Assembly (NCBI GenBank): GCA_009829735.1
Contig: CM020618.1
Span: 9,143,119 to 9,207,118, forward strand
Source of the DNA: Pyropia yezoensis
Lineage: Eukaryota; Rhodophyta; Bangiophyceae; Bangiales; Bangiaceae
Length of the DNA stretch: 64,000 bases
Direction: 5' to 3'
Both the position numbers and the translations under genes were made by a program. The notes beneath the pieces are model-generated. The model was not told the origin of the DNA. It worked only from the letters and a program-made list of their open reading frames with translations, and did not search any database. Positions 24,295 to 59,356 of the stretch are shown piece by piece (within the stretch, counting starts at the first letter, position 1; the number at the start of each line of letters is the position of its first letter).

Positions 24295-24298
24295 AATA

Positions 24299-24870
24299 AG
24301 TGGTATAAAACTCGATCCTCTCAGACACGTGTCAATATCCCTCGGGGGAAAGGGACAGGTAACACAGAAAGGGGAACTACGAGAATGGTATGCCTGTTGC
24401 CTCACGTGCCTGCTCGCAGAGCAAACAGATACGCACGGTAGTGCACACGGGGAAGAGGAAAGCAAACGCGCAGTTGTCTTTTTCCTGAGGGCGCGGGCCA
24501 AGGGCGCCTCGCTGTCCCTCTTAACGTGCATCTGGGGGAGCCTCGGCACGTTGGCCAGGTAGCCCCCCCCATAACCCCGAGTGGCCCCGACCCGAGTCTA
24601 ACCTCGTCAGGTCGGGGGCCACTTTCACTACTAATTCTATTCCCACTCACTAATCTCACACTCAATTTCTCTCAAATCAAGTCCCTCACAAATATGCAAA
24701 AACCCATCAGAAATCCCTCTCTCACGTGTGGATAGCGTAGTCCACCGCATCCCAGTGCCGGGCACGGGCCACGGCCGCCAACCATCACCACACGGCGGGC
24801 GTGTTCTGGCACCTGGTGCCCTCTGGTTGTAGTCCCGGGTCGGCGCCAAGTCGGGGCCAGGGATGCTACA
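24299..24870 (-). repeat. E1 right LTR (5' LTR in element orientation)
   Basis: 572 bp and about 1% different from the left LTR. It is the first LTR of the tandem array: the sequence after it (GCGCGGACGGGG) is the same as after each of the nine solo LTRs. The right copy of the GCGCG duplication follows at 24871-24875. Confidence 0.95.
24581..24622. repeat. Central inverted repeat of the LTR
   Basis: GTGGCCCCGACC and GGTCGGGGGCCAC pair with one bulge around a 17-base loop, forming a strong GC hairpin on either strand. It is kept in all thirteen LTR copies. It could act in RNA folding or 3' end formation of the element transcript, but nothing in the sequence proves this. Confidence 0.6.
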
Positions 24871-26702
24871 GCGCGGACGGGGGCCGTAACAGTATCAGCC
24901 CGGTTCAAGACAAGCAGCAATTCCGCCCAGAGGACGTATGCCCGACGGTAAGCAGCGGCACGAGACGGGCAAACGTAGCGGTCCAGCACGTCGCACACGG
25001 CTGCAACGCGCAGTCCGATCTTGTGGCACGCCCTGACTGCGAATGTACCCCGCTAGTAGGGAGCCGGGGTCACGCCGACGTCGACACGGAGGGCCCGAGC
25101 CATTGCGATGGCGTACTCCTTTGCCTGCTCTGCTCCAAAATCGAATGTTACCGCTCCAATCCCCAGCGACAACAACCACGGGCTGACACCAAGGGTGATG
25201 TGCAAGGGCATGGGCACGATATTGTCCGGTGAGAAGTGCATTAGCGGTCGCTTTTCGAATGACAGGGCAGTCGAGACCGCGGGGGGCGTTGCCAGCGTCG
25301 TCAGAGGTCCGTTTGCATACAAGATCGCAGTCGCCGACTTGTGGTTGAGTGTGCGTGGCACGCGCGCAGCGCTGCTACCATCGTAGAGGGTGCCGTGAAT
25401 CTCCCAATCAGGAAGTAGCGTATTACTTGCGCTTGTCTCTCGCGCGAGAGAGCAGCAGTACGTTCAAGGAAATCGGCAGGCTGGCCCGGCGTGGCCGGCA
25501 AAGCATGTTGTGAATGAGAAGTTCCCCATGAACCTCATGTGCACCGGTCGCGTGACACCAGCCACAGTGACTCCGTTGGTCCGCAGGTCCTCAATATCTG
25601 GCACGTACAGCTCCGCCATGACGGCCAGTGACAAGTAGTTGTCCTTCTGGCATGGGAACATTCCAAAGAGAGTCGTGTTGTACCTGCTGCACGAATGTCG
25701 CTGGTTGATGCACGCTAGCATTGCCTTGCATGAGCTTTGATGTCCGCTTTTGTCGAGGCGAAACGGAAGAAGATCTTTACCGGATGGCCGGGCCGCGACG
25801 GGGCGCTAGATAGACTGGTTCCTGGCCAGGAGATCCTCCAACAGCGCATCAAATGCTGCCCTAAAGCTAACCAGAGTGGCACCACCGGTTGAAGGTTGCA
25901 CTAGATTGCGCTCTTCTGCGTAGGCCGCTAGACCATCAGCGCGCATGACCGGGGTGCTGGCCAGGCCGCTCTGCGACCCGCCGATTAGGCCGCGGATCCG
26001 CTGCCACGTCACATGCGATACGCTCTTTGCCACGATGAACTGCGTCCGCAGCCTCACGGGAATAGCGGAGAGTGCTGTGAGCGACACAACGGCCATAATC
26101 CCCGGCTCCGTGGCCCGCCGGCAGACATCCTTCAGGACGACCTCCGTAGCAGTATCATCTTCACGGCACAATCTTTCCATCGAAAAATATGCACCAAGGG
26201 ACAGCCGCAGAGCTTGTCTGCGACCGACGTCAACCTTACACGGCACGGTCTAGCGGGTGTACAGCAAGTCACGCCTGATGCCCGACCTTGGCCTTCACTT
26301 AAGTAGCTTTTCAGCCGCAAGGTGCATGCCGACGATGGCCCCGACAGACCGCCGCTGGGTCTCGTCGAGCGTGACATACGAGCCAATGACCGTCGCGATG
26401 GCCGAATCGGCGCTAGGATTGAACCCGAGCGCTGGCACGCCCGAGGCACTCTCATTGGTCACGGTGGGCGCGCGGACCGCCGCACAGCTCACCGGAGCAC
26501 ACAGAGCGGTCGCGTCGACGGCGCCGCAAGATGGCCCTCCGGGGACCCCTATAAGGACTTCCCCCTAATCCCATGCCTCATACCTAAGGGATATTATCTG
26601 GGACCACTCCTTACAGATCCTGCCGAACCAGCGCCTGGCAACATCGATCAAGTCCTTGTATTGTGGGGCATGACGCGGTGTTCCTTCCAGACTTAAGATA
26701 AG
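24871..26702 (-). pseudogene. Transposase-like pseudogene, 5' part, spacer copy 1
   Basis: One minus-strand frame stays open, apart from in-frame stops, from 26702 to the E1 junction at 24871 and then continues past E1 at 15215. There are about six internal stops (TAG and TGA, no TAA) and no frameshift in ~1830 bp. Recognisable stretches are QYKDLIDVARRWFGRICKEW, then TVIGSYVTLDETQRRSVGAI. A Cys-containing stretch follows (FAGHAGPACRFP), then SPDNIVPMPLHITLGV, and near the junction AYRRAYVLWAELLLVLN. The order of a G-H-x-G-C segment, a P-LH-LG motif and a later EQGLEAWH recalls a family of uncharacterised transposase-like proteins; this rests on memory only. Smaller frames on both strands of this spacer are shadows. 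All ten spacers carry the same stops, so the gene was dead before amplification. Confidence 0.5.
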
Positions 26703-26896
26703 TCAGCCGCTGTCTGACGGTGTGTGCCAGCCGGACGACAACAGCTATCGACAGCCCATCATGGCCTGTCGAAAGGCGCCACCGTCAGCAACCATGACGA
26801 TGCACATCTGCCACAGCTGGCTAGTCCGTAAGAATGTCCTCGCTGGAGCATTGCAGCCATATGACTGGCTAGCCGGCCGGCCATTTCGGTCGACTC
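26703..26896. other. Spacer segment upstream of the pseudogene frame
   Basis: The last ~190 bp of each spacer, between the open frame and the next LTR. A minus-strand frame in a different register (MAGRLASHMAAMLQRGHSYG...) reads through here and is continuous with the sequence right of E2, so an upstream exon is possible. GACTC at the end (26892-26896) is the E2 target-site sequence. Confidence 0.35.
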
Positions 26897-27468
26897 TGTG
26901 GTATAAAACTCGATCCTCTCAGACACGTGTCAATATCCCTCGGGGGAAAGGGACAGGTAACACAGAAAGGGGAACTACGAGAATGGTATGCCTGTTGCCT
27001 CACGTGCCTGCTCGCAGAGCAAACAGATACGCACGGTAGTGCACACGGGGAAGAGGAAAGCAAACGCGCAGTTGTCTTTTTCCTGAGGGCGCGGGCCAAG
27101 GGCGCCTCGCTGTCCCTCTTAACGTGCATCTGGGGGAGCCTCGGCACGTTGGCCAGGTAGCCCCCCTCATAACCCCGAGTGGCCCCGACCCGAGTCTAAC
27201 CTCGTCAGGTCGGGGGCCACTTTCACTACTAATTCTATTCCCACTCACTAATCTCACACTCAATTTCTCTCAAATCAAGTCCCTCACAAGTATGCAAAAA
27301 CCCATCAGAAATCCCTCTCTCACGTGTGGATAGCGTAGTCCACCGCATCCCAGTGCCGGGCACGGGCCACGGCCGCCAACCATCACCACACGGCGGGCGT
27401 GTTCTGGCACCTGGTGCCCTCTGGTTGTAGTCCCGGGTCGGCGCCAAGTCGGGGCCAGGGATGCTACA
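26897..27468 (-). mobile_element. Solo LTR 1 of the array
   Basis: 572 bp with intact TG...CA ends, flanked by GACTC on the left and GCGCG on the right, so it is a recombinant LTR. It has a private base in the central C tract (CCCCCCTCATAACC). Confidence 0.95.
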
Positions 27469-29494
27469 GCGCGGACGGGGGCCGTAACAGTATCAGCCCG
27501 GTTCAAGACAAGCAGCAATTCCGCCCAGAGGACGTATGCCCGACGGTAAGCAGCGGCACGAGACGGGCAAACGTAGCGGTCCAGCACGTCGCACACGGCT
27601 GCAACGCGCAGTCCGATCTTGTGGCACGCCCTGACTGCGAATGTACCCCGCTAGTAGGGAGCCGGGGTCACGCCGACGTCGACACGGAGGGCCCGAGCCA
27701 TTGCGATGGCGTACTCCTTTGCCTGCTCTGCTCCAAAATCGAATGTTACCGCTCCAATCCCCAGCGACAACAACCACGGGCTGACACCAAGGGTGATGTG
27801 CAAGGGCATGGGCACGATATTGTCCGGTGAGAAGTGCATTAGCGGTCGCTTTTCGAATGACAGGGCAGTCGAGACCGCGGGGGGCGTTGCCAGCGTCGTC
27901 AGAGGTCCGTTTGCATACAAGATCGCAGTCGCCGACTTGTGGTTGAGTGTGCGTGGCACGCGCGCAGCGCTGCTACCATCGTAGAGGGTGCCGTGAATCT
28001 CCCAATCAGGAAGTAGCGTATTACTTGCGCTTGTCTCTCGCGCGAGAGAGCAGCAGTACGTTCAAGGAAATCGGCAGGCTGGCCCGGCGTGGCCGGCAAA
28101 GCATGTTGTGAATGAGAAGTTCCCCATGAACCTCATGTGCACCGGTCGCGTGACACCAGCCACAGTGACTCCGTTGGTCCGCAGGTCCTCAATATCTGGC
28201 ACGTACAGCTCCGCCATGACGGCCAGTGACAAGTAGTTGTCCTTCTGGCATGGGAACATTCCAAAGAGAGTCGTGTTGTACCTGCTGCACGAATGTCGCT
28301 GGTTGATGCACGCTAGCATTGCCTTGCATGAGCTTTGATGTCCGCTTTTGTCGAGGCGAAACGGAAGAAGATCTTTACCGGATGGCCGGGCCGCGACGGG
28401 GCGCTAGATAGACTGGTTCCTGGCCAGGAGATCCTCCAACAGCGCATCAAATGCTGCCCTAAAGCTAACCAGAGTGGCACCACCGGTTGAAGGTTGCACT
28501 AGATTGCGCTCTTCTGCGTAGGCCGCTAGACCATCAGCGCGCATGACCGGGGTGCTGGCCAGGCCGCTCTGCGACCCGCCGATTAGGCCGCGGATCCGCT
28601 GCCACGTCACATGCGATACGCTCTTTGCCACGATGAACTGCGTCCGCAGCCTCACGGGAATAGCGGAGAGTGCTGTGAGCGACACAACGGCCATAATCCC
28701 CGGCTCCGTGGCCCGCCGGCAGACATCCTTCAGGACGACCTCCGTAGCAGTATCATCTTCACGGCACAATCTTTCCATCGAAAAATATGCACCAAGGGAC
28801 AGCCGCAGAGCTTGTCTGCGACCGACGTCAACCTTACACGGCACGGTCTAGCGGGTGTACAGCAAGTCACGCCTGATGCCCGACCTTGGCCTTCACTTAA
28901 GTAGCTTTTCAGCCGCAAGGTGCATGCCGACGATGGCCCCGACAGACCGCCGCTGGGTCTCGTCGAGCGTGACATACGAGCCAATGACCGTCGCGATGGC
29001 CGAATCGGCGCTAGGATTGAACCCGAGCGCTGGCACGCCCGAGGCACTCTCATTGGTCACGGTGGGCGCGCGGACCGCCGCACAGCTCACCGGAGCACAC
29101 AGAGCGGTCGCGTCGACGGCGCCGCAAGATGGCCCTCCGGGGACCCCTATAAGGACTTCCCCCTAATCCCATGCCTCATACCTAAGGGATATTATCTGGG
29201 ACCACTCCTTACAGATCCTGCCGAACCAGCGCCTGGCAACATCGATCAAGTCCTTGTATTGTGGGGCATGACGCGGTGTTCCTTCCAGACTTAAGATAAG
29301 TCAGCCGCTGTCTGACGGTGTGTGCCAGCCGGACGACAACAGCTATCGACAGCCCATCATGGCCTGTCGAAAGGCGCCACCGTCAGCAACCATGACGATG
29401 CACATCTGCCACAGCTGGCTAGTCCGTAAGAATGTCCTCGCTGGAGCATTGCAGCCATATGACTGGCTAGCCGGCCGGCCATTTCGGTCGACTC
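27469..29494. repeat. Spacer copy 2 (transposase-like pseudogene)
   Basis: 2026 bp, matching spacer 1 base for base at every variable site used here (CACGGGCTGAC, CTTCACGGCAC, GAGGTCCGTTTG). Confidence 0.93.
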
Positions 29495-30065
29495 TGTGGT
29501 ATAAAACTCGATCCTCTCAGACACGTGTCAATATCCCTCGGGGGAAAGGGACAGGTAACACAGAAAGGGGAACTACGAGAATGGTATGCCTGTTGCCTCA
29601 CGTGCCTGCTCGCAGAGCAAACAGATACGCACGGTAGTGCACACGGGGAAGAGGAAAGCAAACGCGCAGTTGTCTTTTTCCTGAGGGCGCGGGCCAAGGG
29701 CGCCTCGCTGTCCCTCTTAACGTGCATCTGGGGGAGCCTCGGCACGTTGGCCAGGTAGCCCCCCCATAACCCCGAGTGGCCCCGACCCGAGTCTAACCTC
29801 GTCAGGTCGGGGGCCACTTTCACTACTAATTCTATTCCCACTCACTAATCTCACACTCAATTTCTCTCAAATCAAGTCCCTCACAAGTATGCAAAAACCC
29901 ATCAGAAATCCCTCTCTCACGTGTGGATAGCGTAGTCCACCGCATCCCAGTGCCGGGCACGGGCCACGGCCGCCAACCATCACCACACGGCGGGCGTGTT
30001 CTGGCACCTGGTGCCCTCTGGTTGTAGTCCCGGGTCGGCGCCAAGTCGGGGCCAGGGATGCTACA
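29495..30065 (-). mobile_element. Solo LTR 2 of the array
   Basis: 571 bp with the shorter (7-C) form of the central C tract; flanks GACTC / GCGCG. Confidence 0.95.
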
Positions 30066-32090
30066 GCGCGGACGGGGGCCGTAACAGTATCAGCCCGGTT
30101 CAAGACAAGCAGCAATTCCGCCCAGAGGACGTATGCCCGACGGTAAGCAGCGGCACGAGACGGGCAAACGTAGCGGTCCAGCACGTCGCACACGGCTGCA
30201 ACGCGCAGTCCGATCTTGTGGCACGCCCTGACTGCGAATGTACCCCGCTAGTAGGGAGCCGGGGTCACGCCGACGTCGACACGGAGGGCCCGAGCCATTG
30301 CGATGGCGTACTCCTTTGCCTGCTCTGCTCCAAAATCGAATGTTACCGCTCCAATCCCCAGCGACAACAACCACGGCTGACACCAAGGGTGATGTGCAAG
30401 GGCATGGGCACGATATTGTCCGGTGAGAAGTGCATTAGCGGTCGCTTTTCGAATGACAGGGCAGTCGAGACCGCGGGGGGCGTTGCCAGCGTCGTCAGAG
30501 GTCCGTTTGCATACAAGATCGCAGTCGCCGACTTGTGGTTGAGTGTGCGTGGCACGCGCGCAGCGCTGCTACCATCGTAGAGGGTGCCGTGAATCTCCCA
30601 ATCAGGAAGTAGCGTATTACTTGCGCTTGTCTCTCGCGCGAGAGAGCAGCAGTACGTTCAAGGAAATCGGCAGGCTGGCCCGGCGTGGCCGGCAAAGCAT
30701 GTTGTGAATGAGAAGTTCCCCATGAACCTCATGTGCACCGGTCGCGTGACACCAGCCACAGTGACTCCGTTGGTCCGCAGGTCCTCAATATCTGGCACGT
30801 ACAGCTCCGCCATGACGGCCAGTGACAAGTAGTTGTCCTTCTGGCATGGGAACATTCCAAAGAGAGTCGTGTTGTACCTGCTGCACGAATGTCGCTGGTT
30901 GATGCACGCTAGCATTGCCTTGCATGAGCTTTGATGTCCGCTTTTGTCGAGGCGAAACGGAAGAAGATCTTTACCGGATGGCCGGGCCGCGACGGGGCGC
31001 TAGATAGACTGGTTCCTGGCCAGGAGATCCTCCAACAGCGCATCAAATGCTGCCCTAAAGCTAACCAGAGTGGCACCACCGGTTGAAGGTTGCACTAGAT
31101 TGCGCTCTTCTGCGTAGGCCGCTAGACCATCAGCGCGCATGACCGGGGTGCTGGCCAGGCCGCTCTGCGACCCGCCGATTAGGCCGCGGATCCGCTGCCA
31201 CGTCACATGCGATACGCTCTTTGCCACGATGAACTGCGTCCGCAGCCTCACGGGAATAGCGGAGAGTGCTGTGAGCGACACAACGGCCATAATCCCCGGC
31301 TCCGTGGCCCGCCGGCAGACATCCTTCAGGACGACCTCCGTAGCAGTATCATCTTCACGGCACAATCTTTCCATCGAAAAATATGCACCAAGGGACAGCC
31401 GCAGAGCTTGTCTGCGACCGACGTCAACCTTACACGGCACGGTCTAGCGGGTGTACAGCAAGTCACGCCTGATGCCCGACCTTGGCCTTCACTTAAGTAG
31501 CTTTTCAGCCGCAAGGTGCATGCCGACGATGGCCCCGACAGACCGCCGCTGGGTCTCGTCGAGCGTGACATACGAGCCAATGACCGTCGCGATGGCCGAA
31601 TCGGCGCTAGGATTGAACCCGAGCGCTGGCACGCCCGAGGCACTCTCATTGGTCACGGTGGGCGCGCGGACCGCCGCACAGCTCACCGGAGCACACAGAG
31701 CGGTCGCGTCGACGGCGCCGCAAGATGGCCCTCCGGGGACCCCTATAAGGACTTCCCCCTAATCCCATGCCTCATACCTAAGGGATATTATCTGGGACCA
31801 CTCCTTACAGATCCTGCCGAACCAGCGCCTGGCAACATCGATCAAGTCCTTGTATTGTGGGGCATGACGCGGTGTTCCTTCCAGACTTAAGATAAGTCAG
31901 CCGCTGTCTGACGGTGTGTGCCAGCCGGACGACAACAGCTATCGACAGCCCATCATGGCCTGTCGAAAGGCGCCACCGTCAGCAACCATGACGATGCACA
32001 TCTGCCACAGCTGGCTAGTCCGTAAGAATGTCCTCGCTGGAGCATTGCAGCCATATGACTGGCTAGCCGGCCGGCCATTTCGGTCGACTC
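30066..32090. repeat. Spacer copy 3 (transposase-like pseudogene)
   Basis: 2025 bp. One G fewer than copies 1-2 at the CACGGCTGAC site; otherwise the left-side variant set (CTTCACGGCAC). Confidence 0.93.
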
Positions 32091-32662
32091 TGTGGTATAA
32101 AACTCGATCCTCTCAGACACGTGTCAATATCCCTCGGGGGAAAGGGACAGGTAACACAGAAAGGGGAACTACGAGAATGGTATGCCTGTTGCCTCACGTG
32201 CCTGCTCGCAGAGCAAACAGATACGCACGGTAGTGCACACGGGGAAGAGGAAAGCAAACGCGCAGTTGTCTTTTTCCTGAGGGCGCGGGCCAAGGGCGCC
32301 TCGCTGTCCCTCTTAACGTGCATCTGGGGGAGCCTCGGCACGTTGGCCAGGTAGCCCCCCCCATAACCCCGAGTGGCCCCGACCCGAGTCTAACCTCGTC
32401 AGGTCGGGGGCCACTTTCACTACTAATTCTATTCCCACTCACTAATCTCACACTCAATTTCTCTCAAATCAAGTCCCTCACAAGTATGCAAAAACCCATC
32501 AGAAATCCCTCTCTCACGTGTGGATAGCGTAGTCCACCGCATCCCAGTGCCGGGCACGGGCCACGGCCGCCAACCATCACCACACGGCGGGCGTGTTCTG
32601 GCACCTGGTGCCCTCTGGTTGTAGTCCCGGGTCGGCGCCAAGTCGGGGCCAGGGATGCTACA
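32091..32662 (-). mobile_element. Solo LTR 3 of the array
   Basis: 572 bp, 8-C form; flanks GACTC / GCGCG. Confidence 0.95.
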
Positions 32663-34687
32663 GCGCGGACGGGGGCCGTAACAGTATCAGCCCGGTTCAA
32701 GACAAGCAGCAATTCCGCCCAGAGGACGTATGCCCGACGGTAAGCAGCGGCACGAGACGGGCAAACGTAGCGGTCCAGCACGTCGCACACGGCTGCAACG
32801 CGCAGTCCGATCTTGTGGCACGCCCTGACTGCGAATGTACCCCGCTAGTAGGGAGCCGGGGTCACGCCGACGTCGACACGGAGGGCCCGAGCCATTGCGA
32901 TGGCGTACTCCTTTGCCTGCTCTGCTCCAAAATCGAATGTTACCGCTCCAATCCCAGCGACAACAACCACGAGCTGACACCAAGGGTGATGTGCAAGGGC
33001 ATGGGCACGATATTGTCCGGTGAGAAGTGCATTAGCGGTCGCTTTTCGAATGACAGGGCAGTCGAGACCGCGGGGGGCGTTGCCAGCGTCGTCAGAGGTC
33101 CGTTTGCATACAAGATCGCAGTCGCCGACTTGTGGTTGAGTGTGCGTGGCACGCGCGCAGCGCTGCTACCATCGTAGAGGGTGCCGTGAATCTCCCAATC
33201 AGGAAGTAGCGTATTACTTGCGCTTGTCTCTCGCGCGAGAGAGCAGCAGTACGTTCAAGGAAATCGGCAGGCTGGCCCGGCGTGGCCGGCAAAGCATGTT
33301 GTGAATGAGAAGTTCCCCATGAACCTCATGTGCACCGGTCGCGTGACACCAGCCACAGTGACTCCGTTGGTCCGCAGGTCCTCAATATCTGGCACGTACA
33401 GCTCCGCCATGACGGCCAGTGACAAGTAGTTGTCCTTCTGGCATGGGAACATTCCAAAGAGAGTCGTGTTGTACCTGCTGCACGAATGTCGCTGGTTGAT
33501 GCACGCTAGCATTGCCTTGCATGAGCTTTGATGTCCGCTTTTGTCGAGGCGAAACGGAAGAAGATCTTTACCGGATGGCCGGGCCGCGACGGGGCGCTAG
33601 ATAGACTGGTTCCTGGCCAGGAGATCCTCCAACAGCGCATCAAATGCTGCCCTAAAGCTAACCAGAGTGGCACCACCGGTTGAAGGTTGCACTAGATTGC
33701 GCTCTTCTGCGTAGGCCGCTAGACCATCAGCGCGCATGACCGGGGTGCTGGCCAGGCCGCTCTGCGACCCGCCGATTAGGCCGCGGATCCGCTGCCACGT
33801 CACATGCGATACGCTCTTTGCCACGATGAACTGCGTCCGCAGCCTCACGGGAATAGCGGAGAGTGCTGTGAGCGACACAACGGCCATAATCCCCGGCTCC
33901 GTGGCCCGCCGGCAGACATCCTTCAGGACGACCTCCGTAGCAGTATCATCTTCACGGCACAATCTTTCCATCGAAAAATATGCACCAAGGGACAGCCGCA
34001 GAGCTTGTCTGCGACCGACGTCAACCTTACACGGCACGGTCTAGCGGGTGTACAGCAAGTCACGCCTGATGCCCGACCTTGGCCTTCACTTAAGTAGCTT
34101 TTCAGCCGCAAGGTGCATGCCGACGATGGCCCCGACAGACCGCCGCTGGGTCTCGTCGAGCGTGACATACGAGCCAATGACCGTCGCGATGGCCGAATCG
34201 GCGCTAGGATTGAACCCGAGCGCTGGCACGCCCGAGGCACTCTCATTGGTCACGGTGGGCGCGCGGACCGCCGCACAGCTCACCGGAGCACACAGAGCGG
34301 TCGCGTCGACGGCGCCGCAAGATGGCCCTCCGGGGACCCCTATAAGGACTTCCCCCTAATCCCATGCCTCATACCTAAGGGATATTATCTGGGACCACTC
34401 CTTACAGATCCTGCCGAACCAGCGCCTGGCAACATCGATCAAGTCCTTGTATTGTGGGGCATGACGCGGTGTTCCTTCCAGACTTAAGATAAGTCAGCCG
34501 CTGTCTGACGGTGTGTGCCAGCCGGACGACAACAGCTATCGACAGCCCATCATGGCCTGTCGAAAGGCGCCACCGTCAGCAACCATGACGATGCACATCT
34601 GCCACAGCTGGCTAGTCCGTAAGAATGTCCTCGCTGGAGCATTGCAGCCATATGACTGGCTAGCCGGCCGGCCATTTCGGTCGACTC
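32663..34687. repeat. Spacer copy 4 (transposase-like pseudogene)
   Basis: 2025 bp. First copy with CACGAGCTGAC, and one C fewer at AATCCCAGCG. It still has the left-side CTTCACGGCAC, so it is a mosaic of left and right variant sets. Confidence 0.93.
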
Positions 34688-35259
34688 TGTGGTATAAAAC
34701 TCGATCCTCTCAGACACGTGTCAATATCCCTCGGGGGAAAGGGACAGGTAACACAGAAAGGGGAACTACGAGAATGGTATGCCTGTTTCCTCACGTGCCT
34801 GCTCGCAGAGCAAACAGATACGCACGGTAGTGCACACGGGGAAGAGGAAAGCAAACGCGCAGTTGTCTTTTTCCTGAGGGCGCGGGCCAAGGGCGCCTCG
34901 CTGTCCCTCTTAACGTGCATCTGGGGGAGCCTCGGCACGTTGGCCAGGTAGCCCCCCCCATAACCCCGAGTGGCCCCGACCCGAGTCTAACCTCGTCAGG
35001 TCGGGGGCCACTTTCACTACTAATTCTATTCCCACTCACTAATCTCACACTCAATTTCTCTCAAATCAAGTCCCTCACAAGTATGCAAAAACCCATCAGA
35101 AATCCCTCTCTCACGTGTGGATAGCGTAGTCCACCGCATCCCAGTGCCGGGCACGGGCCACGGCCGCCAACCATCACCACACGGCGGGCGTGTTCTGGCA
35201 CCTGGTGCCCTCTGGTTGTAGTCCCGGGTCGGCGCCAAGTCGGGGCCAGGGATGCTACA
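34688..35259 (-). mobile_element. Solo LTR 4 of the array
   Basis: 572 bp with a private T in CCTGTTTCCTCACG; flanks GACTC / GCGCG. Confidence 0.95.
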
Positions 35260-40454: not shown

Positions 40455-42479
40455 GCGCGGACGGGGGCCGTAACAGTATCAGCCCGGTTCAAGACAAGCA
40501 GCAATTCCGCCCAGAGGACGTATGCCCGACGGTAAGCAGCGGCACGAGACGGGCAAACGTAGCGGTCCAGCACGTCGCACACGGCTGCAACGCGCAGTCC
40601 GATCTTGTGGCACGCCCTGACTGCGAATGTACCCCGCTAGTAGGGAGCCGGGGTCACGCCGACGTCGACACGGAGGGCCCGAGCCATTGCGATGGCGTAC
40701 TCCTTTGCCTGCTCTGCTCCAAAATCGAATGTTACCGCTCCAATCCCCAGCGACAACAACCACGAGCTGACACCAAGGGTGATGTGCAAGGGCATGGGCA
40801 CGATATTGTCCGGTGAGAAGTGCATTAGCGGTCGCTTATCGAATGACAGGGCAGTCGAGACCGCGGGGGGCGTTGCCAGCGTCGTCAGAGGCCGTTTGCA
40901 TACAAGATCGCAGTCGCCGACTTGTGGTTGAGTGTGCGTGGCACGCGCGCAGCGCTGCTACCATCGTAGAGGGTGCCGTGAATCTCCCAATCAGGAAGTA
41001 GCGTATTACTTGCGCTTGTCTCTCGCGCGAGAGAGCAGCAGTACGTTCAAGGAAATCGGCAGGCTGGCCCGGCGTGGCCGGCAAAGCATGTTGTGAATGA
41101 GAAGTTCCCCATGAACCTCATGTGCACCGGTCGCGTGACACCAGCCACAGTGACTCCGTTGGTCCGCAGGTCCTCAATATCTGGCACGTACAGCTCCGCC
41201 ATGACGGCCAGTGACAAGTAGTTGTCCTTCTGGCATGGGAACATTCCAAAGAGAGTCGTGTTGTACCTGCTGCACGAATGTCGCTGGTTGATGCACGCTA
41301 GCATTGCCTTGCATGAGCTTTGATGTCCGCTTTTGTCGAGGCGAAACGGAAGAAGATCTTTACCGGATGGCCGGGCCGCGACGGGGCGCTAGATAGACTG
41401 GTTCCTGGCCAGGAGATCCTCCAACAGCGCATCAAATGCTGCCCTAAAGCTAACCAGAGTGGCACCACCGGTTGAAGGTTGCACTAGATTGCGCTCTTCT
41501 GCGTAGGCCGCTAGACCATCAGCGCGCATGACCGGGGTGCTGGCCAGGCCGCTCTGCGACCCGCCGATTAGGCCGCGGATCCGCTGCCACGTCACATGCG
41601 ATACGCTCTTTGCCACGATGAACTGCGTCCGCAGCCTCACGGGAATAGCGGAGAGTGCTGTGAGCGACACAACGGCCATAATCCCCGGCTCCGTGGCCCG
41701 CCGGCAGACATCCTTCAGGACGACCTCCGTAGCAGTATCATCTTCGCGGCACAATCTTTCCATCGAAAAATATGCACCAAGGGACAGCCGCAGAGCTTGT
41801 CTGCGACCGACGTCAACCTTACACGGCACGGTCTAGCGGGTGTACAGCAAGTCACGCCTGATGCCCGACCTTGGCCTTCACTTAAGTAGCTTTTCAGCCG
41901 CAAGGTGCATGCCGACGATGGCCCCGACAGACCGCCGCTGGGTCTCGTCGAGCGTGACATACGAGCCAATGACCGTCGCGATGGCCGAATCGGCGCTAGG
42001 ATTGAACCCGAGCGCTGGCACGCCCGAGGCACTCTCATTGGTCACGGTGGGCGCGCGGACCGCCGCACAGCTCACCGGAGCACACAGAGCGGTCGCGTCG
42101 ACGGCGCCGCAAGATGGCCCTCCGGGGACCCCTATAAGGACTTCCCCCTAATCCCATGCCTCATACCTAAGGGATATTATCTGGGACCACTCCTTACAGA
42201 TCCTGCCGAACCAGCGCCTGGCAACATCGATCAAGTCCTTGTATTGTGGGGCATGACGCGGTGTTCCTTCCAGACTTAAGATAAGTCAGCCGCTGTCTGA
42301 CGGTGTGTGCCAGCCGGACGACAACAGCTATCGACAGCCCATCATGGCCTGTCGAAAGGCGCCACCGTCAGCAACCATGACGATGCACATCTGCCACAGC
42401 TGGCTAGTCCGTAAGAATGTCCTCGCTGGAGCATTGCAGCCATATGACTGGCTAGCCGGCCGGCCATTTCGGTCGACTC
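40455..42479. repeat. Spacer copy 7 (transposase-like pseudogene)
   Basis: 2025 bp. Has GCTTATCGAATG (shared only with copy 8) and a 1-bp shorter GAGGCCGTTTG. Confidence 0.93.
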
Positions 42480-43051
42480 TGTGGTATAAAACTCGATCCT
42501 CTCAGACACGTGTCAATATCCCTCGGGGGAAAGGGACAGGTAACACAGAAAGGGGAACTACGAGAATGGTATGCCTGTTGCCTCACGTGCCTGCTCGCAG
42601 AGCAAACAGATACGCACGGTAGTGCACACGGGGAAGAGGAAAGCAAACGCGCAGTTGTCTTTTTCCTGAGGGCGCGGGCCAAGGGCGCCTCGCTGTCCCT
42701 CTTAACGTGCATCTGGGGGAGCCTCGGCACGTTGGCCAGGTAGCCCCCCCCATAACCCCGAGTGGCCCCGACCCGAGTCTAACCTCGTCAGGTCGGGGGC
42801 CACTTTCACTACTAATTCTATTCCCACTCACTAATCTCACACTCAATTTCTCTCAAATCAAGTCCCTCACAAGTATGCAAAAACCCATCAGAAATCCCTC
42901 TCTCACGTGTGGATAGCGTAGTCCACCGCATCCCAGTGCCGGGCACGGGCCACGGCCGCCAACCATCACCACACGGCGGGCGTGTTCTGGCACCTGGTGC
43001 CCTCTGGTTGTAGTCCCGGGTCGGCGCCAAGTCGGGGCCAGGGATGCTACA
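42480..43051 (-). mobile_element. Solo LTR 7 of the array
   Basis: 572 bp, 8-C form; flanks GACTC / GCGCG. Confidence 0.95.
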
Positions 43052-45077
43052 GCGCGGACGGGGGCCGTAACAGTATCAGCCCGGTTCAAGACAAGCAGCA
43101 ATTCCGCCCAGAGGACGTATGCCCGACGGTAAGCAGCGGCACGAGACGGGCAAACGTAGCGGTCCAGCACGTCGCACACGGCTGCAACGCGCAGTCCGAT
43201 CTTGTGGCACGCCCTGACTGCGAATGTACCCCGCTAGTAGGGAGCCGGGGTCACGCCGACGTCGACACGGAGGGCCCGAGCCATTGCGATGGCGTACTCC
43301 TTTGCCTGCTCTGCTCCAAAATCGAATGTTACCGCTCCAATCCCCAGCGACAACAACCACGAGCTGACACCAAGGGTGATGTGCAAGGGCATGGGCACGA
43401 TATTGTCCGGTGAGAAGTGCATTAGCGGTCGCTTATCGAATGACAGGGCAGTCGAGACCGCGGGGGGCGTTGCCAGCGTCGTCAGAGGCCCGTTTGCATA
43501 CAAGATCGCAGTCGCCGACTTGTGGTTGAGTGTGCGTGGCACGCGCGCAGCGCTGCTACCATCGTAGAGGGTGCCGTGAATCTCCCAATCAGGAAGTAGC
43601 GTATTACTTGCGCTTGTCTCTCGCGCGAGAGAGCAGCAGTACGTTCAAGGAAATCGGCAGGCTGGCCCGGCGTGGCCGGCAAAGCATGTTGTGAATGAGA
43701 AGTTCCCCATGAACCTCATGTGCACCGGTCGCGTGACACCAGCCACAGTGACTCCGTTGGTCCGCAGGTCCTCAATATCTGGCACGTACAGCTCCGCCAT
43801 GACGGCCAGTGACAAGTAGTTGTCCTTCTGGCATGGGAACATTCCAAAGAGAGTCGTGTTGTACCTGCTGCACGAATGTCGCTGGTTGATGCACGCTAGC
43901 ATTGCCTTGCATGAGCTTTGATGTCCGCTTTTGTCGAGGCGAAACGGAAGAAGATCTTTACCGGATGGCCGGGCCGCGACGGGGCGCTAGATAGACTGGT
44001 TCCTGGCCAGGAGATCCTCCAACAGCGCATCAAATGCTGCCCTAAAGCTAACCAGAGTGGCACCACCGGTTGAAGGTTGCACTAGATTGCGCTCTTCTGC
44101 GTAGGCCGCTAGACCATCAGCGCGCATGACCGGGGTGCTGGCCAGGCCGCTCTGCGACCCGCCGATTAGGCCGCGGATCCGCTGCCACGTCACATGCGAT
44201 ACGCTCTTTGCCACGATGAACTGCGTCCGCAGCCTCACGGGAATAGCGGAGAGTGCTGTGAGCGACACAACGGCCATAATCCCCGGCTCCGTGGCCCGCC
44301 GGCAGACATCCTTCAGGACGACCTCCGTAGCAGTATCATCTTCGCGGCACAATCTTTCCATCGAAAAATATGCACCAAGGGACAGCCGCAGAGCTTGTCT
44401 GCGACCGACGTCAACCTTACACGGCACGGTCTAGCGGGTGTACAGCAAGTCACGCCTGATGCCCGACCTTGGCCTTCACTTAAGTAGCTTTTCAGCCGCA
44501 AGGTGCATGCCGACGATGGCCCCGACAGACCGCCGCTGGGTCTCGTCGAGCGTGACATACGAGCCAATGACCGTCGCGATGGCCGAATCGGCGCTAGGAT
44601 TGAACCCGAGCGCTGGCACGCCCGAGGCACTCTCATTGGTCACGGTGGGCGCGCGGACCGCCGCACAGCTCACCGGAGCACACAGAGCGGTCGCGTCGAC
44701 GGCGCCGCAAGATGGCCCTCCGGGGACCCCTATAAGGACTTCCCCCTAATCCCATGCCTCATACCTAAGGGATATTATCTGGGACCACTCCTTACAGATC
44801 CTGCCGAACCAGCGCCTGGCAACATCGATCAAGTCCTTGTATTGTGGGGCATGACGCGGTGTTCCTTCCAGACTTAAGATAAGTCAGCCGCTGTCTGACG
44901 GTGTGTGCCAGCCGGACGACAACAGCTATCGACAGCCCATCATGGCCTGTCGAAAGGCGCCACCGTCAGCAACCATGACGATGCACATCTGCCACAGCTG
45001 GCTAGTCCGTAAGAATGTCCTCGCTGGAGCATTGCAGCCATATGACTGGCTAGCCGGCCGGCCATTTCGGTCGACTC
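43052..45077. repeat. Spacer copy 8 (transposase-like pseudogene)
   Basis: 2026 bp. GCTTATCGAATG as in copy 7, with GAGGCCCGTTTG as in copy 10. Confidence 0.93.
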
Positions 45078-45649
45078 TGTGGTATAAAACTCGATCCTCT
45101 CAGACACGTGTCAATATCCCTCGGGGGAAAGGGACAGGTAACACAGAAAGGGGAACTACGAGAATGGTATGCCTGTTGCCTCACGTGCCTGCTCGCAGAG
45201 CAAACAGATACGCACGGTAGTGCACACGGGGAAGAGGAAAGCAAACGCGCAGTTGTCTTTTTCCTGAGGGCGCGGGCCAAGGGCGCCTCGCTGTCCCTCT
45301 TAACGTGCATCTGGGGGAGCCTCGGCACGTTGGCCAGGTAGCCCCCCCCATAACCCCGAGTGGCCCCGACCCGAGTCTAACCTCGTCAGGTCGGGGGCCA
45401 CTTTCACTACTAATTCTATTCCCACTCACTAATCTCACACTCAATTTCTCTCAAATCAAGTCCCTCACAAGTATGCAAAAACCCATCAGAAATCCCTCTC
45501 TCACGTGTGGATAGCGTAGTCCACCGCATCCCAGTGCCGGGCACGGGCCACGGCCGCCAACCATCACCACACGGCGGGCGTGTTCTGGCACCTGGTGCCC
45601 TCTGGTTGTAGTCCCGGGTCGGCGCCAAGTCGGGGCCAGGGATGCTACA
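45078..45649 (-). mobile_element. Solo LTR 8 of the array
   Basis: 572 bp, 8-C form; flanks GACTC / GCGCG. Confidence 0.95.
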
Positions 45650-47675
45650 GCGCGGACGGGGGCCGTAACAGTATCAGCCCGGTTCAAGACAAGCAGCAAT
45701 TCCGCCCAGAGGACGTATGCCCGACGGTAAGCAGCGGCACGAGACGGGCAAACGTAGCGGTCCAGCACGTCGCACACGGCTGCAACGCGCAGTCCGATCT
45801 TGTGGCACGCCCTGACTGCGAATGTACCCCGCTAGTAGGGAGCCGGGGTCACGCCGACGTCGACACGGAGGGCCCGAGCCATTGCGATGGCGTACTCCTT
45901 TGCCTGCTCTGCTCCAAAATCGAATGTTACCGCTCCAATCCCCAGCGACAACAACCACGAGCTGACACCAAGGGTGATGTGCAAGGGCATGGGCACGATA
46001 TTGTCCGGTGAGAAGTGCATTAGCGGTCGCTTTTCGAATGACAGGGCAGTCGAGACCGCGGGGGGCGTTGCCAGCGTCGTCAGAGGTCCGTTTGCATACA
46101 AGATCGCAGTCGCCGACTTGTGGTTGAGTGTGCGTGGCACGCGCGCAGCGCTGCTACCATCGTAGAGGGTGCCGTGAATCTCCCAATCAGGAAGTAGCGT
46201 ATTACTTGCGCTTGTCTCTCGCGCGAGAGAGCAGCAGTACGTTCAAGGAAATCGGCAGGCTGGCCCGGCGTGGCCGGCAAAGCATGTTGTGAATGAGAAG
46301 TTCCCCATGAACCTCATGTGCACCGGTCGCGTGACACCAGCCACAGTGACTCCGTTGGTCCGCAGGTCCTCAATATCTGGCACGTACAGCTCCGCCATGA
46401 CGGCCAGTGACAAGTAGTTGTCCTTCTGGCATGGGAACATTCCAAAGAGAGTCGTGTTGTACCTGCTGCACGAATGTCGCTGGTTGATGCACGCTAGCAT
46501 TGCCTTGCATGAGCTTTGATGTCCGCTTTTGTCGAGGCGAAACGGAAGAAGATCTTTACCGGATGGCCGGGCCGCGACGGGGCGCTAGATAGACTGGTTC
46601 CTGGCCAGGAGATCCTCCAACAGCGCATCAAATGCTGCCCTAAAGCTAACCAGAGTGGCACCACCGGTTGAAGGTTGCACTAGATTGCGCTCTTCTGCGT
46701 AGGCCGCTAGACCATCAGCGCGCATGACCGGGGTGCTGGCCAGGCCGCTCTGCGACCCGCCGATTAGGCCGCGGATCCGCTGCCACGTCACATGCGATAC
46801 GCTCTTTGCCACGATGAACTGCGTCCGCAGCCTCACGGGAATAGCGGAGAGTGCTGTGAGCGACACAACGGCCATAATCCCCGGCTCCGTGGCCCGCCGG
46901 CAGACATCCTTCAGGACGACCTCCGTAGCAGTATCATCTTCGCGGCACAATCTTTCCATCGAAAAATATGCACCAAGGGACAGCCGCAGAGCTTGTCTGC
47001 GACCGACGTCAACCTTACACGGCACGGTCTAGCGGGTGTACAGCAAGTCACGCCTGATGCCCGACCTTGGCCTTCACTTAAGTAGCTTTTCAGCCGCAAG
47101 GTGCATGCCGACGATGGCCCCGACAGACCGCCGCTGGGTCTCGTCGAGCGTGACATACGAGCCAATGACCGTCGCGATGGCCGAATCGGCGCTAGGATTG
47201 AACCCGAGCGCTGGCACGCCCGAGGCACTCTCATTGGTCACGGTGGGCGCGCGGACCGCCGCACAGCTCACCGGAGCACACAGAGCGGTCGCGTCGACGG
47301 CGCCGCAAGATGGCCCTCCGGGGACCCCTATAAGGACTTCCCCCTAATCCCATGCCTCATACCTAAGGGATATTATCTGGGACCACTCCTTACAGATCCT
47401 GCCGAACCAGCGCCTGGCAACATCGATCAAGTCCTTGTATTGTGGGGCATGACGCGGTGTTCCTTCCAGACTTAAGATAAGTCAGCCGCTGTCTGACGGT
47501 GTGTGCCAGCCGGACGACAACAGCTATCGACAGCCCATCATGGCCTGTCGAAAGGCGCCACCGTCAGCAACCATGACGATGCACATCTGCCACAGCTGGC
47601 TAGTCCGTAAGAATGTCCTCGCTGGAGCATTGCAGCCATATGACTGGCTAGCCGGCCGGCCATTTCGGTCGACTC
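45650..47675. repeat. Spacer copy 9 (transposase-like pseudogene)
   Basis: 2026 bp. Back to GAGGTCCGTTTG and GCTTTTCGAATG, as in copy 5, between two copies with GAGGCCCGTTTG. Confidence 0.93.
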
Positions 47676-48246
47676 TGTGGTATAAAACTCGATCCTCTCA
47701 GACACGTGTCAATATCCCTCGGGGGAAAGGGACAGGTAACACAGAAAGGGGAACTACGAGAATGGTATGCCTGTTGCCTCACGTGCCTGCTCGCAGAGCA
47801 AACAGATACGCACGGTAGTGCACACGGGGAAGAGGAAAGCAAACGCGCAGTTGTCTTTTTCCTGAGGGCGCGGGCCAAGGGCGCCTCGCTGTCCCTCTTA
47901 ACGTGCATCTGGGGGAGCCTCGGCACGTTGGCCAGGTAGCCCCCCCATAACCCCGAGTGGCCCCGACCCGAGTCTAACCTCGTCAGGTCGGGGGCCACTA
48001 TCACTACTAATTCTATTCCCACTCACTAATCTCACACTCAATTTCTCTCAAATCAAGTCCCTCACAAGTATGCAAAAACCCATCAGCAATCCCTCTCTCA
48101 CGTGTGGATAGCGTAGTCCACCGCATCCCAGTGCCGGGCACGGGCCACGGCCGCCAACCATCACCACACGGCGGGCGTGTTCTGGCACCTGGTGCCCTCT
48201 GGTTGTAGTCCCGGGTCGGCGCCAAGTCGGGGCCAGGGATGCTACA
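47676..48246 (-). mobile_element. Solo LTR 9 of the array, E2-right-LTR type
   Basis: 571 bp. It carries the 7-C tract, CCACTATCACTAC and CATCAGCAATCCC, a combination otherwise seen only in the right LTR of E2 (59357-59927) and not in E2's left LTR next door. It therefore derives from exchange involving E2's right LTR. Confidence 0.95.
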
Positions 48247-50272
48247 GCGCGGACGGGGGCCGTAACAGTATCAGCCCGGTTCAAGACAAGCAGCAATTCC
48301 GCCCAGAGGACGTATGCCCGACGGTAAGCAGCGGCACGAGACGGGCAAACGTAGCGGTCCAGCACGTCGCACACGGCTGCAACGCGCAGTCCGATCTTGT
48401 GGCACGCCCTGACTGCGAATGTACCCCGCTAGTAGGGAGCCGGGGTCACGCCGACGTCGACACGGAGGGCCCGAGCCATTGCGATGGCGTACTCCTTTGC
48501 CTGCTCTGCTCCAAAATCGAATGTTACCGCTCCAATCCCCAGCGACAACAACCACGAGCTGACACCAAGGGTGATGTGCAAGGGCATGGGCACGATATTG
48601 TCCGGTGAGAAGTGCATTAGCGGTCGCTTTTCGAATGACAGGGCAGTCGAGACCGCGGGGGGCGTTGCCAGCGTCGTCAGAGGCCCGTTTGCATACAAGA
48701 TCGCAGTCGCCGACTTGTGGTTGAGTGTGCGTGGCACGCGCGCAGCGCTGCTACCATCGTAGAGGGTGCCGTGAATCTCCCAATCAGGAAGTAGCGTATT
48801 ACTTGCGCTTGTCTCTCGCGCGAGAGAGCAGCAGTACGTTCAAGGAAATCGGCAGGCTGGCCCGGCGTGGCCGGCAAAGCATGTTGTGAATGAGAAGTTC
48901 CCCATGAACCTCATGTGCACCGGTCGCGTGACACCAGCCACAGTGACTCCGTTGGTCCGCAGGTCCTCAATATCTGGCACGTACAGCTCCGCCATGACGG
49001 CCAGTGACAAGTAGTTGTCCTTCTGGCATGGGAACATTCCAAAGAGAGTCGTGTTGTACCTGCTGCACGAATGTCGCTGGTTGATGCACGCTAGCATTGC
49101 CTTGCATGAGCTTTGATGTCCGCTTTTGTCGAGGCGAAACGGAAGAAGATCTTTACCGGATGGCCGGGCCGCGACGGGGCGCTAGATAGACTGGTTCCTG
49201 GCCAGGAGATCCTCCAACAGCGCATCAAATGCTGCCCTAAAGCTAACCAGAGTGGCACCACCGGTTGAAGGTTGCACTAGATTGCGCTCTTCTGCGTAGG
49301 CCGCTAGACCATCAGCGCGCATGACCGGGGTGCTGGCCAGGCCGCTCTGCGACCCGCCGATTAGGCCGCGGATCCGCTGCCACGTCACATGCGATACGCT
49401 CTTTGCCACGATGAACTGCGTCCGCAGCCTCACGGGAGTAGCGGAGAGTGCTGTGAGCGACACAACGGCCATAATCCCCGGCTCCGTGGCCCGCCGGCAG
49501 ACATCCTTCAGGACGACCTCCGTAGCAGTATCATCTTCGCGGCACAATCTTTCCATCGAAAAATATGCACCAAGGGACAGCCGCAGAGCTTGTCTGCGAC
49601 CGACGTCAACCTTACACGGCACGGTCTAGCGGGTGTACAGCAAGTCACGCCTGATGCCCGACCTTGGCCTTCACTTAAGTAGCTTTTCAGCCGCAAGGTG
49701 CATGCCGACGATGGCCCCGACAGACCGCCGCTGGGTCTCGTCGAGCGTGACATACGAGCCAATGACCGTCGCGATGGCCGAATCGGCGCTAGGATTGAAC
49801 CCGAGCGCTGGCACGCCCGAGGCACTCTCATTGGTCACGGTGGGCGCGCGGACCGCCGCACAGCTCACCGGAGCACACAGAGCGGTCGCGTCGACGGCGC
49901 CGCAAGATGGCCCTCCGGGGACCCCTATAAGGACTTCCCCCTAATCCCATGCCTCATACCTAAGGGATATTATCTGGGACCACTCCTTACAGATCCTGCC
50001 GAACCAGCGCCTGGCAACATCGATCAAGTCCTTGTATTGTGGGGCATGACGCGGTGTTCCTTCCAGACTTAAGATAAGTCAGCCGCTGTCTGACGGTGTG
50101 TGCCAGCCGGACGACAACAGCTATCGACAGCCCATCATGGCCTGTCGAAAGGCGCCACCGTCAGCAACCATGACGATGCACATCTGCCACAGCTGGCTAG
50201 TCCGTAAGAATGTCCTCGCTGGAGCATTGCAGCCATATGACTGGCTAGCCGGCCGGCCATTTCGGTCGACTC
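48247..50272. repeat. Spacer copy 10 (transposase-like pseudogene)
   Basis: 2026 bp. Private G in CACGGGAGTAGCGG; GAGGCCCGTTTG. It ends in GACTC (50268-50272), the left target duplication of E2. Confidence 0.93.
50268..50272. repeat. E2 target-site duplication, left copy (GACTC)
   Basis: GACTC before the left LTR and again directly after the right LTR at 59928-59932. The same five bases precede every solo LTR of the array. Confidence 0.9.
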
Positions 50273-50844
50273 TGTGGTATAAAACTCGATCCTCTCAGAC
50301 ACGTGTCAATATCCCTCGGGGGAAAGGGACAGGTAACACAGAAAGGGGAACTACGAGAATGGTATGCCTGTTGCCTCACGTGCCTGCTCGCAGAGCAAAC
50401 AGATACGCACGGTAGTGCACACGGGGAAGAGGAAAGCAAACGCGCAGTTGTCTTTTTCCTGAGGGCGCGGGCCAAGGGCGCCTCGCTGTCCCTCTTAACG
50501 TGCATCTGGGGGAGCCTCGGCACGTTGGCCAGGTAGCCCCCCCCATAACCCCGAGTGGCCCCGACCCGAGTCTAACCTCGTCAGGTCGGGGGCCACTTTC
50601 ACTACTAATTCTATTCCCACTCACTAATCTCACACTCAATTTCTCTCAAATCAAGTCCCTCACAAGTATGCAAAAACCCATCAGAAATCCCTCTCTCACG
50701 TGTGGATAGCGTAGTCCACCGCATCCCAGTGCCGTGCACGGGCCACGGCCGCCAACCATCACCACACGGCGGGCGTGTTCTGGCACCTGGTGCCCTCTGG
50801 TTGTAGTCCCGGGTCGGCGCCAAGTCGGGGCCAGGGATGCTACA
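50273..50844 (-). repeat. E2 left LTR (3' LTR in element orientation), last LTR of the array
   Basis: 572 bp, 8-C form with a private T in GTGCCGTGCACGGG. It ends GATGCTACA and is followed by the E2 polypurine tract instead of GCGCG. Confidence 0.95.
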
Positions 50845-50859
50845 TAGCTCCCTCCCTAG
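50845..50859 (-). other. E2 polypurine tract
   Basis: CTAGGGAGGGAGCTA on the minus strand, directly upstream of the 3' LTR, as in E1. Confidence 0.75.
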
Positions 50860-59352: not shown

Positions 59353-59356
59353 AATA

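What the first reader, a model, noticed from the sequence alone, without database searches (positions are those of the whole stretch)
24299..50844. A 2-kb segment amplified tenfold between two retrotransposons, with LTRs as the exchange points
Ten near-identical spacers alternate with nine solo LTRs, bracketed by two complete elements of the same family and orientation. A gene segment flanked by two insertions becomes a tandem array if E1's right LTR and E2's left LTR recombine unequally: each event adds one LTR-plus-spacer unit. The window preserves founders, junctions and products together, which makes the route readable.
Basis: partly seen in the sequence, partly recalled or inferred. Interest (0 to 1): 0.9.

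Follow-up and report, generated by a model that had tools for sequence, protein, structure and literature searches.

The report
Tenfold array from retrotransposon-end recombination
In what is probably a red seaweed genome, two copies of the same mobile element landed about 2,000 bases apart at the remains of a dead gene, and the DNA between them now appears ten times over, most likely because the elements' near-identical ends recombined out of register; this is a known kind of event, preserved unusually completely.

Summary
Two complete Ty3/gypsy-type elements in the same orientation (E1 15216-24870, E2 50273-59927) bracket ten 2025-2026-bp spacers and nine lone 571-572-bp LTRs.

The flanks show the route. 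E1 has its own 5-bp target duplication (GCGCG), E2 its own (GACTC). All nine inner LTRs carry E2's on the left and E1's on the right, so none is an ordinary solo LTR; 3 of 3 true solo LTRs elsewhere have matching duplications.

Both founder sites are independently confirmed: E1 interrupts a decayed gene relic, E2 a dispersed repeat. Each unit holds the piece between them. The LTRs mix E1-right and E2-left variants. No further full spacer copy was found.

Corrections: the 'gene segment' is a stop-bearing relic of a multicopy family, and unit number and order in this assembly are not secure. A crossover inside the elements, then loss of the interior, would leave the same products. The mechanism is known; this is a very clean new case, inferred to be in Pyropia yezoensis.

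The parts
15211..15215 (.). E1 target-site duplication, left copy (GCGCG)
15216..24870 (-). E1: complete Ty3/gypsy-type element (LTRs 15216-15786 and 24299-24870); pol frame interrupted
24871..24875 (.). E1 target-site duplication, right copy (GCGCG); also starts each of the ten spacers
14604..15215 (-). C-terminal part of the decayed gene relic (residues 792-992 of relative L033) left of E1; not in the units
24871..26896 (.). Spacer S1 (2026 bp), unit 1
24897..26450 (-). Middle part of the same relic (residues 270-784 of L033, 46% identity, 5 in-frame stops), repeated in all ten units
26541..26896 (.). Left half of a dispersed repeat (about 90% identical copies elsewhere), cut by E2; repeated in all ten units
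26897..27468 (-). Junction LTR J1, flanks GACTC / GCGCG
27469..29494 (.). Spacer S2
29495..30065 (-). Junction LTR J2, flanks GACTC / GCGCG
30066..32090 (.). Spacer S3
32091..32662 (-). Junction LTR J3, flanks GACTC / GCGCG
32663..34687 (.). Spacer S4
34688..35259 (-). Junction LTR J4, flanks GACTC / GCGCG
35260..37285 (.). Spacer S5
37286..37857 (-). Junction LTR J5, flanks GACTC / GCGCG
37858..39882 (.). Spacer S6
39883..40454 (-). Junction LTR J6, flanks GACTC / GCGCG
40455..42479 (.). Spacer S7
42480..43051 (-). Junction LTR J7, flanks GACTC / GCGCG
43052..45077 (.). Spacer S8
45078..45649 (-). Junction LTR J8, flanks GACTC / GCGCG
45650..47675 (.). Spacer S9
47676..48246 (-). Junction LTR J9, flanks GACTC / GCGCG; keeps the E2-type variants behind an E1 flank
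48247..50272 (.). Spacer S10 (ends with the left E2 target duplication GACTC, 50268-50272)
50273..59927 (-). E2: complete Ty3/gypsy-type element (LTRs 50273-50844 and 59357-59927); open pol frame 53296-57255
59928..59932 (.). E2 target-site duplication, right copy (GACTC)
59933..60432 (.). Right half of the dispersed repeat cut by E2; not in the units

Best explanation
One element, E1, inserted into a decayed gene relic (target GCGCG). A second copy of the same family, E2, inserted about 2 kb away in the same orientation, in a dispersed repeat next to the relic (target GACTC). The right LTR of E1 and the left LTR of E2, almost identical and in direct orientation, then paired out of register and exchanged (unequal homologous recombination between sister chromatids or homologues), giving E1-spacer-LTR-spacer-E2. 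Once one extra unit existed, LTR and spacer together were a 2.6-kb direct repeat, so further unequal exchanges and conversions raised the number to ten in this assembly and spread variants along the array. Shown: both insertions, their sites, the hybrid flanks of each of nine junctions, and LTR variants shared between E1R, the inner LTRs and E2L. Inferred: that the first exchange fell in the LTRs, that growth was stepwise, the order of the two insertions, and that the true unit number is ten.
For: Flanks: E1 GCGCG on both sides, E2 GACTC on both sides, and 9 of 9 inner LTRs GACTC on the left and GCGCG on the right. Genome-wide, GACTC plus the first 20 LTR bases occurs exactly 11 times, 10 of them here (nine inner LTRs and E2L). 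Controls, chosen by me from the listings: 7 of 8 complete elements (one, L016, with the low-complexity GGGGG) and 3 of 3 true solo LTRs have identical flanking 5-mers. E1 site: with E1 and one duplication left out, the relic reads in a single frame across the site over 729 aligned residues at 49% identity to an ORF elsewhere in the genome. E2 site: 5 of 5 fetched copies of the dispersed repeat align across it without an insert. The relic's other part lies left of E1 and the repeat's other half right of E2, outside the units. LTR variants: T at LTR column 326, in its exact 24-base context, occurs 12 times in the genome, 10 of them in E1R, J1-J8 and E2L; E1L, E2R and J9 have A. C at column 413, a common family variant (184 places), is here in E2R and J9 only, so J9 has E2's LTR type behind an E1 flank while E2L now has the E1R/array type. 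Neighbouring spacers are more alike than in shuffled orders (6 against a mean of 15.4 substitutions, p = 0.0006).
Against: No reads were available. Two of the three deletion columns among spacers coincide with substitution columns (probability 1.5e-5), which looks like consensus calling on mixed reads, so unit order and number are uncertain. Only two robust LTR variants (columns 326 and 413) separate the E1R type from the E2 type; J2's separate class rests on a C-run length. E1R's own variants at columns 1 and 394 and E2L's at 463 are in none of the inner LTRs, so they must be later changes or the inner LTRs are not simple copies of today's E1R and E2L. The markers show sharing among E1R, inner LTRs and E2L but not its direction. 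A crossover inside the elements followed by LTR-LTR loss gives identical products.
Confidence: 0.8

Rival explanations
1. Two-step route: the unequal crossover fell somewhere in the 8.5-kb interiors of E1 and E2, leaving a full hybrid element between two spacers; its interior was later lost by recombination between its two LTRs. Further growth as in the best explanation.
For: The interiors are a longer target (8512 bp, 345 substitutions, no gaps). Interior loss leaving lone LTRs occurs in this genome (3 true solo LTRs among 7 single LTRs fetched). The hybrid flanks and LTR mixtures would be the same.
Against: Needs an extra step, and no hybrid full-length element remains in the array. The LTRs are more alike than the interiors (E1R against E2L: 3 substitutions in 572 columns), though they may have become so through the exchanges.
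Confidence: 0.12
2. Circle route: E1R and E2L recombined within one chromatid to release a circle of one LTR plus one spacer; the circle was copied by rolling-circle replication and went back into the locus through the LTR, adding many units at once.
For: The circle's unit is exactly the array unit, and LTR-flanked loci are held to form such circles in yeast (GAP1; passages of PMC10667340).
Against: A single burst would give units alike at first, without the ordered change along the array seen (p = 0.0006). That evidence is weak, since it rests on five substitution columns in an assembly whose unit order is uncertain.
Confidence: 0.1
3. Assembly artefact in unit number (compatible with the best explanation for the existence of the array): the real locus has fewer or more units, and the assembler placed near-identical reads arbitrarily.
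For: Deletions at two columns that are also substitution columns; the published P. yezoensis assembly is PacBio long reads with contig N50 340.8 kb, joined by BioNano and Hi-C (passages of PMC7423979), and the 26.5-kb array may exceed most reads (inference).
Against: Junctions with hybrid flanks and unit-specific variants are hard to get from a single-copy spacer, so at least a few units should exist; the window has no N.
Confidence: 0.25
4. The array is a run of small non-autonomous retroelements (TRIM/Cassandra-like) in which the spacer is the internal region and neighbours share an LTR.
For: The same LTR-spacer-LTR look; Cassandra arrays reach at least 12 units (passages of PMC7215508).
Against: The spacer ends are the two target duplications and interrupted host sequence, not the sequences that border the LTRs inside E1 and E2.
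Confidence: 0.01

Closest known systems
Ectopic unequal crossover between LTRs causing segmental duplication, as stated in a paper on maize P1-wr (PMC2686159, passages seen)
   Same: The paper states that unequal crossovers between LTRs at different positions duplicate or delete segments and leave an LTR whose two flanking duplications differ, the criterion met here in 9 of 9.
   Different: In that paper the one solo LTR of the cluster had identical flanks (intra-element loss), and the eleven 12-kb P1-wr repeats are gene copies. Here both founder elements survive and every unit boundary is an LTR.
Yeast GAP1 locus between two delta LTRs (PMC10667340, passages seen)
   Same: A segment between two LTRs is thought to recombine through them and change copy number (that the circle keeps one LTR is recalled).
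   Different: GAP1 is a selected working gene and is discussed there as an extrachromosomal circle. Here the units are chromosomal and hold a relic.
Tandem retroelements and satellites from recombination between LTRs of two elements (review PMC12628747, passages seen)
   Same: The review lists recombination between LTRs of two different elements as a source of tandem repeats.
   Different: There the repeated unit is the element sharing one LTR; here it is the host sequence between two elements.
Cassandra TRIM tandem arrays (PMC7215508, passages seen)
   Same: LTR and non-LTR segment alternate in long arrays.
   Different: Their spacer is the element's own internal domain; here it is not.
Recombinant K222/K111 retroviruses in human pericentromeres (PMC4425911, passages seen)
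   Same: Differing target duplications are used to recognise recombination between two insertions.
   Different: Proviruses in centromeric repeats, not a lone-LTR unit array.

Membership tests
Tandem amplification by unequal recombination between LTRs of two neighbouring elements | Two elements of one family in direct orientation, each with its own target duplication | tested here: met
   GCGCG for E1, GACTC for E2; same orientation, pol frames on the minus strand
Tandem amplification by unequal recombination between LTRs of two neighbouring elements | Each inner LTR flanked by E2's duplication on the left and E1's on the right | tested here: met
   9 of 9; 10 of 11 exact genomic occurrences of GACTC before an LTR start are here, the tenth being E2L
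Tandem amplification by unequal recombination between LTRs of two neighbouring elements | Inner LTRs are mosaics, E2L type on the left and E1R type on the right | tested here: inconclusive
   J9 is E2 type at columns 265, 326 and 413; J2 fits the expected polarity only through a C-run length at 265; J1 and J3-J8 are E1R type at all three; E1R's variants at columns 1 and 394 are in no inner LTR (markers)
Tandem amplification by unequal recombination between LTRs of two neighbouring elements | Unit boundaries coincide with the two insertion sites | tested here: met
   Relic interrupted at E1; repeat interrupted at E2
Tandem amplification by unequal recombination between LTRs of two neighbouring elements | Copy number differs between individuals; LTR-plus-spacer circles | not testable with these tools
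   No reads or other strains held
Ordinary solo LTR (intra-element recombination) | Identical target duplications on both sides | tested here: not met
   0 of 9 inner LTRs; 3 of 3 control solo LTRs meet it
Ty3/gypsy LTR retrotransposon (E1, E2) | LTRs, 5-bp target duplication, pol with RT-RNase H-integrase order, purine tract | tested here: met
   E2 pol: Pfam RVT_1, RT_RNaseH, Integrase_H2C2, rve in that order; LTR ends, 5-bp duplications and a purine-rich stretch next to the left LTR on the minus strand. The upstream (gag-position) frame has no Pfam match; E1R's first base is changed
Chromovirus branch of Ty3/gypsy | Chromodomain at the end of pol | tested here: inconclusive
   Chromo match below Pfam's cut-off (16.8 against 25.1 bits); PF00385 is precomputed for many of the 120 listed relatives
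Tandem TRIM / Cassandra-type array | Spacer begins and ends with the element's purine tract and priming site | tested here: not met
   Spacer ends are GCGCG... and ...GACTC, unlike the interiors of E1 and E2 next to their LTRs; no priming tRNA was identified
Satellite DNA | Long tandem array of a homogeneous unit | tested here: inconclusive
   Homogeneous, but ten 2.6-kb units at one site; chromatin and cytology not tested

The most novel reading that the evidence does not exclude
The locus is a satellite family caught at birth: two chance retrotransposon landings fixed the unit, and ongoing LTR-LTR exchange is still changing unit number and homogenising the array, so the alga's strains should differ in unit number and release LTR-plus-spacer circles. 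Because each unit carries a complete LTR, the array may also be transcribed unit by unit from its LTR promoters.
Probability: 0.3. Interest if true: 0.6.

Novelty: new member of a known kind. Interest (0 to 1): 0.42.

Why it matters
LTR-LTR exchange is invoked for segmental duplications and for the birth of satellites, but founders, insertion sites, junctions and products are, in my recollection, rarely all present. Here each can be read: two target duplications, two independently interrupted sequences, nine hybrid junctions and mixed LTR variants. As the repeated piece is a dead relic, the case also suggests that such amplification needs no selection on the cargo (inference). Unit-number change becomes directly testable, with one PCR or long-read assay, in what is probably a cultivated seaweed with a haploid stage.

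Tried and rejected
Rejected: nine independent LTR insertions or ordinary solo LTRs (flanks mismatch in 9 of 9). TRIM-like array (spacer ends unlike the element's inner ends). Working gene under amplification: no Pfam match for ten spacer ORFs of 85-146 aa that I chose, except one insignificant one (E 0.21); five in-frame stops in each of ten units. Spacer elsewhere without LTRs: none in full length among the 40 scored of 406 candidates.

Led nowhere: Rfam and tRNA scans of the window gave nothing. Protein searches with two spacer ORF pieces found one distinct relative (P0002, 57% over 56% of the query) and entries 96-100% identical to the window (P0001, P0123). The RT search gave 4304 relatives, 120 listed, without naming the organism. 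Paper searches listed no paper that by title or abstract start describes this locus; one listed 12 of 28 and 59 listed 10 of 112, so this is weak evidence of absence. One search did not reach the P. yezoensis genome paper, one search did. The look for similar arrays elsewhere was limited: 100 LTR starts were listed of 1194 (up to 3 mismatches) in the genome (C1, 1-13.1 Mb), and of these only this window shows same-strand spacing under 7.6 kb; the rest of the genome was not examined for arrays.

Dropped rows: of 7 single LTRs fetched as solo controls, 4 (L018, L020, L022, L023) proved to be ends of larger elements and were not counted. One of 8 complete elements (L012) had mismatched flanks and is counted as a miss.
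Full report
WHAT IS THERE. The window contains 13 LTRs of one family in one orientation: two belong to a complete element E1 (15216-24870), two to a complete element E2 (50273-59927), and nine stand alone between them, separated by ten spacers of 2025-2026 bp. E1 and E2 are minus-strand Ty3/gypsy-type elements: E2's long frame matches reverse transcriptase, RNase H, integrase zinc-binding and integrase core in that order, and a purine-rich stretch borders the left LTR on the minus strand. The interiors of E1 and E2 differ at 345 of 8512 positions without a gap, so they are distinct copies, and each has its own target duplication.

WHERE IT IS. The window is C1:9143119-9207118 of a 107.5-Mb assembly of 11 contigs. 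Its three large contigs measure 43.59, 34.33 and 29.39 Mb. The published Pyropia yezoensis assembly has three scaffolds of 43.6, 34.3 and 29.4 Mbp, 65% GC, PacBio reads with BioNano and Hi-C, and LTR retrotransposons as its predominant repeats (passages of PMC7423979). I infer that species; no tool named it. One point does not match: the paper counts 524 further small contigs, the assembly here has 11 contigs in all.

THE DECISIVE TEST. If the array grew by exchange between E1's right LTR and E2's left LTR, each inner LTR must have E2's duplication on its left and E1's on its right. E1 is flanked by GCGCG on both sides, E2 by GACTC on both sides, and 9 of 9 inner LTRs are flanked by GACTC and GCGCG. 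GACTC directly before an LTR start (exact 25 bases) occurs 11 times in the genome, 10 of them here. As controls, 7 of 8 complete elements and 3 of 3 true solo LTRs elsewhere, chosen from the listings, have identical flanks. The reasoning is established: PMC2686159 states that LTRs left by ectopic unequal crossover have differing flanks while intra-element solo LTRs have identical ones (passage).

BOTH FOUNDER SITES ARE INDEPENDENTLY SHOWN. The spacer's minus strand matches residues 270-784 of a 992-residue ORF elsewhere in the genome (L033; 46% identity, five in-frame stops), and the sequence left of E1 matches residues 792-992. With E1 and one duplication left out, the match is one uninterrupted frame of 729 aligned residues: E1 landed inside this relic. 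Three other relatives (L034-L036) give the same picture. The last 350 or so bases of the spacer are the left half of a dispersed repeat; 5 of 5 fetched copies of it (of 35 matches outside the array listed) continue across the E2 site into the sequence right of E2 at about 90% identity. So each unit contains what lay between two known insertion points, and the outer parts of both interrupted sequences lie outside the array.

WHAT THE UNIT CARRIES. The relic belongs to a multicopy family: its 146-residue piece has 76 further matches in the genome, many in open frames of 600-1072 codons. Pfam gives only sub-threshold matches (DUF1280, 2 of 3 relatives scanned); copy number and shape suggest a transposon-encoded protein (inference). 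All ten units carry five in-frame stops, and four of them (S3, S4, S6, S7) a one-base gap as well.

LTR MIXTURE. At insertion the two LTRs of an element are identical (established). E1R now has T at column 326, E1L and E2R have A; in its exact 24-base context T is nearly private to this locus (12 genomic places: E1R, J1-J8, E2L and two on C3 not examined further). E2R has C at column 413, a common family variant (184 places), shared here only by J9. So J9 has E2's LTR type followed by E1's flank, J1-J8 are E1R type at these sites, and E2L itself has the array type. J2 may be a third class, but only by the length of a C run. E1R's variants at columns 1 and 394 and E2L's at 463 are in no inner LTR and must be younger if the model holds. 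The pattern fits repeated exchange within LTRs, but the markers are few and do not give its direction.

TIMING AND GROWTH. E1L and E1R differ by 5 substitutions, J9 and E2R by one, and spacers on average by 0.084%. Amplification after both insertions is demanded by the unit structure; the numbers are consistent with that but too small to date it. Neighbouring spacers are more alike than in shuffled orders (6 against a mean of 15.4, p = 0.0006), which favours stepwise growth over a single burst, on only five substitution columns.

LIMITS. Two of three deletion columns among spacers fall exactly on substitution columns (S3 at 311, S7 at 438; probability 1.5e-5). I read this as consensus calling on a mixture of reads from near-identical units. 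It supports real multiplicity but makes the number and order of units uncertain. The direct LTR-LTR route and the two-step route (crossover inside the elements, then interior loss) leave the same products; I prefer the direct one for economy. Whether the exchanges were reciprocal, conversion-like or by circles cannot be told.

COMPARISON AND NOVELTY. It works like known LTR-mediated copy-number change: the yeast GAP1 locus (passages of PMC10667340) and LTR-LTR exchange as a source of tandem repeats (review PMC12628747, passages). It is not a TRIM/Cassandra array (PMC7215508, passages), because the spacer is host sequence. Searches listed nothing that by title or abstract start describes this locus or a closely matching array, in an open-access library and from capped lists. 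I rate it a new, very clean member of a known kind.

Noticed in passing
50775-53150 (+), inside E2; split in E1 at 15717-17150 and 17166-18092: Long open frame (791 aa) on the strand opposite pol, between the left LTR and the end of pol. Differences between E1 and E2 fall at codon positions 34/32/62 (p = 0.0014), and 7 of 10 copies examined have a stop-free plus-strand stretch of 710-811 codons in that part (that it is the same frame in each was not checked): perhaps a real antisense gene of this element family. No Pfam match.
   Followed up: partly
L012 (C1:4352820-4362700): A complete element of the family with mismatched flanking 5-mers (GTGGG / GACGG) and LTRs of unequal similarity to E2R (99.5% and 98.3%): likely a product of recombination between two insertions.
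   Followed up: no
L033-L036 and about 72 further matches in the genome: A large, uncharacterised multicopy protein family (841-1060 aa in four copies read) whose decayed member is the array's cargo; only sub-threshold DUF1280 matches.
   Followed up: partly
S3 column 311 (about 30375) and S7 column 438 (about 40891): Single-base deletions exactly at sites that are substitutions between other units: a likely mark of consensus calling on mixed long reads, possibly useful for spotting poorly resolved arrays.
   Followed up: partly
E1 interior against other copies: E1's left LTR is close to E2R (4 substitutions in 571) but its interior is up to 7.4% different from E2 in 1-kb stretches and nearer to L012 or L013 there: possible mosaic between subfamilies.
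   Followed up: no
1356-1653: A 92-bp unit repeated 3.3 times at 97% matches, unrelated to the array.
   Followed up: no
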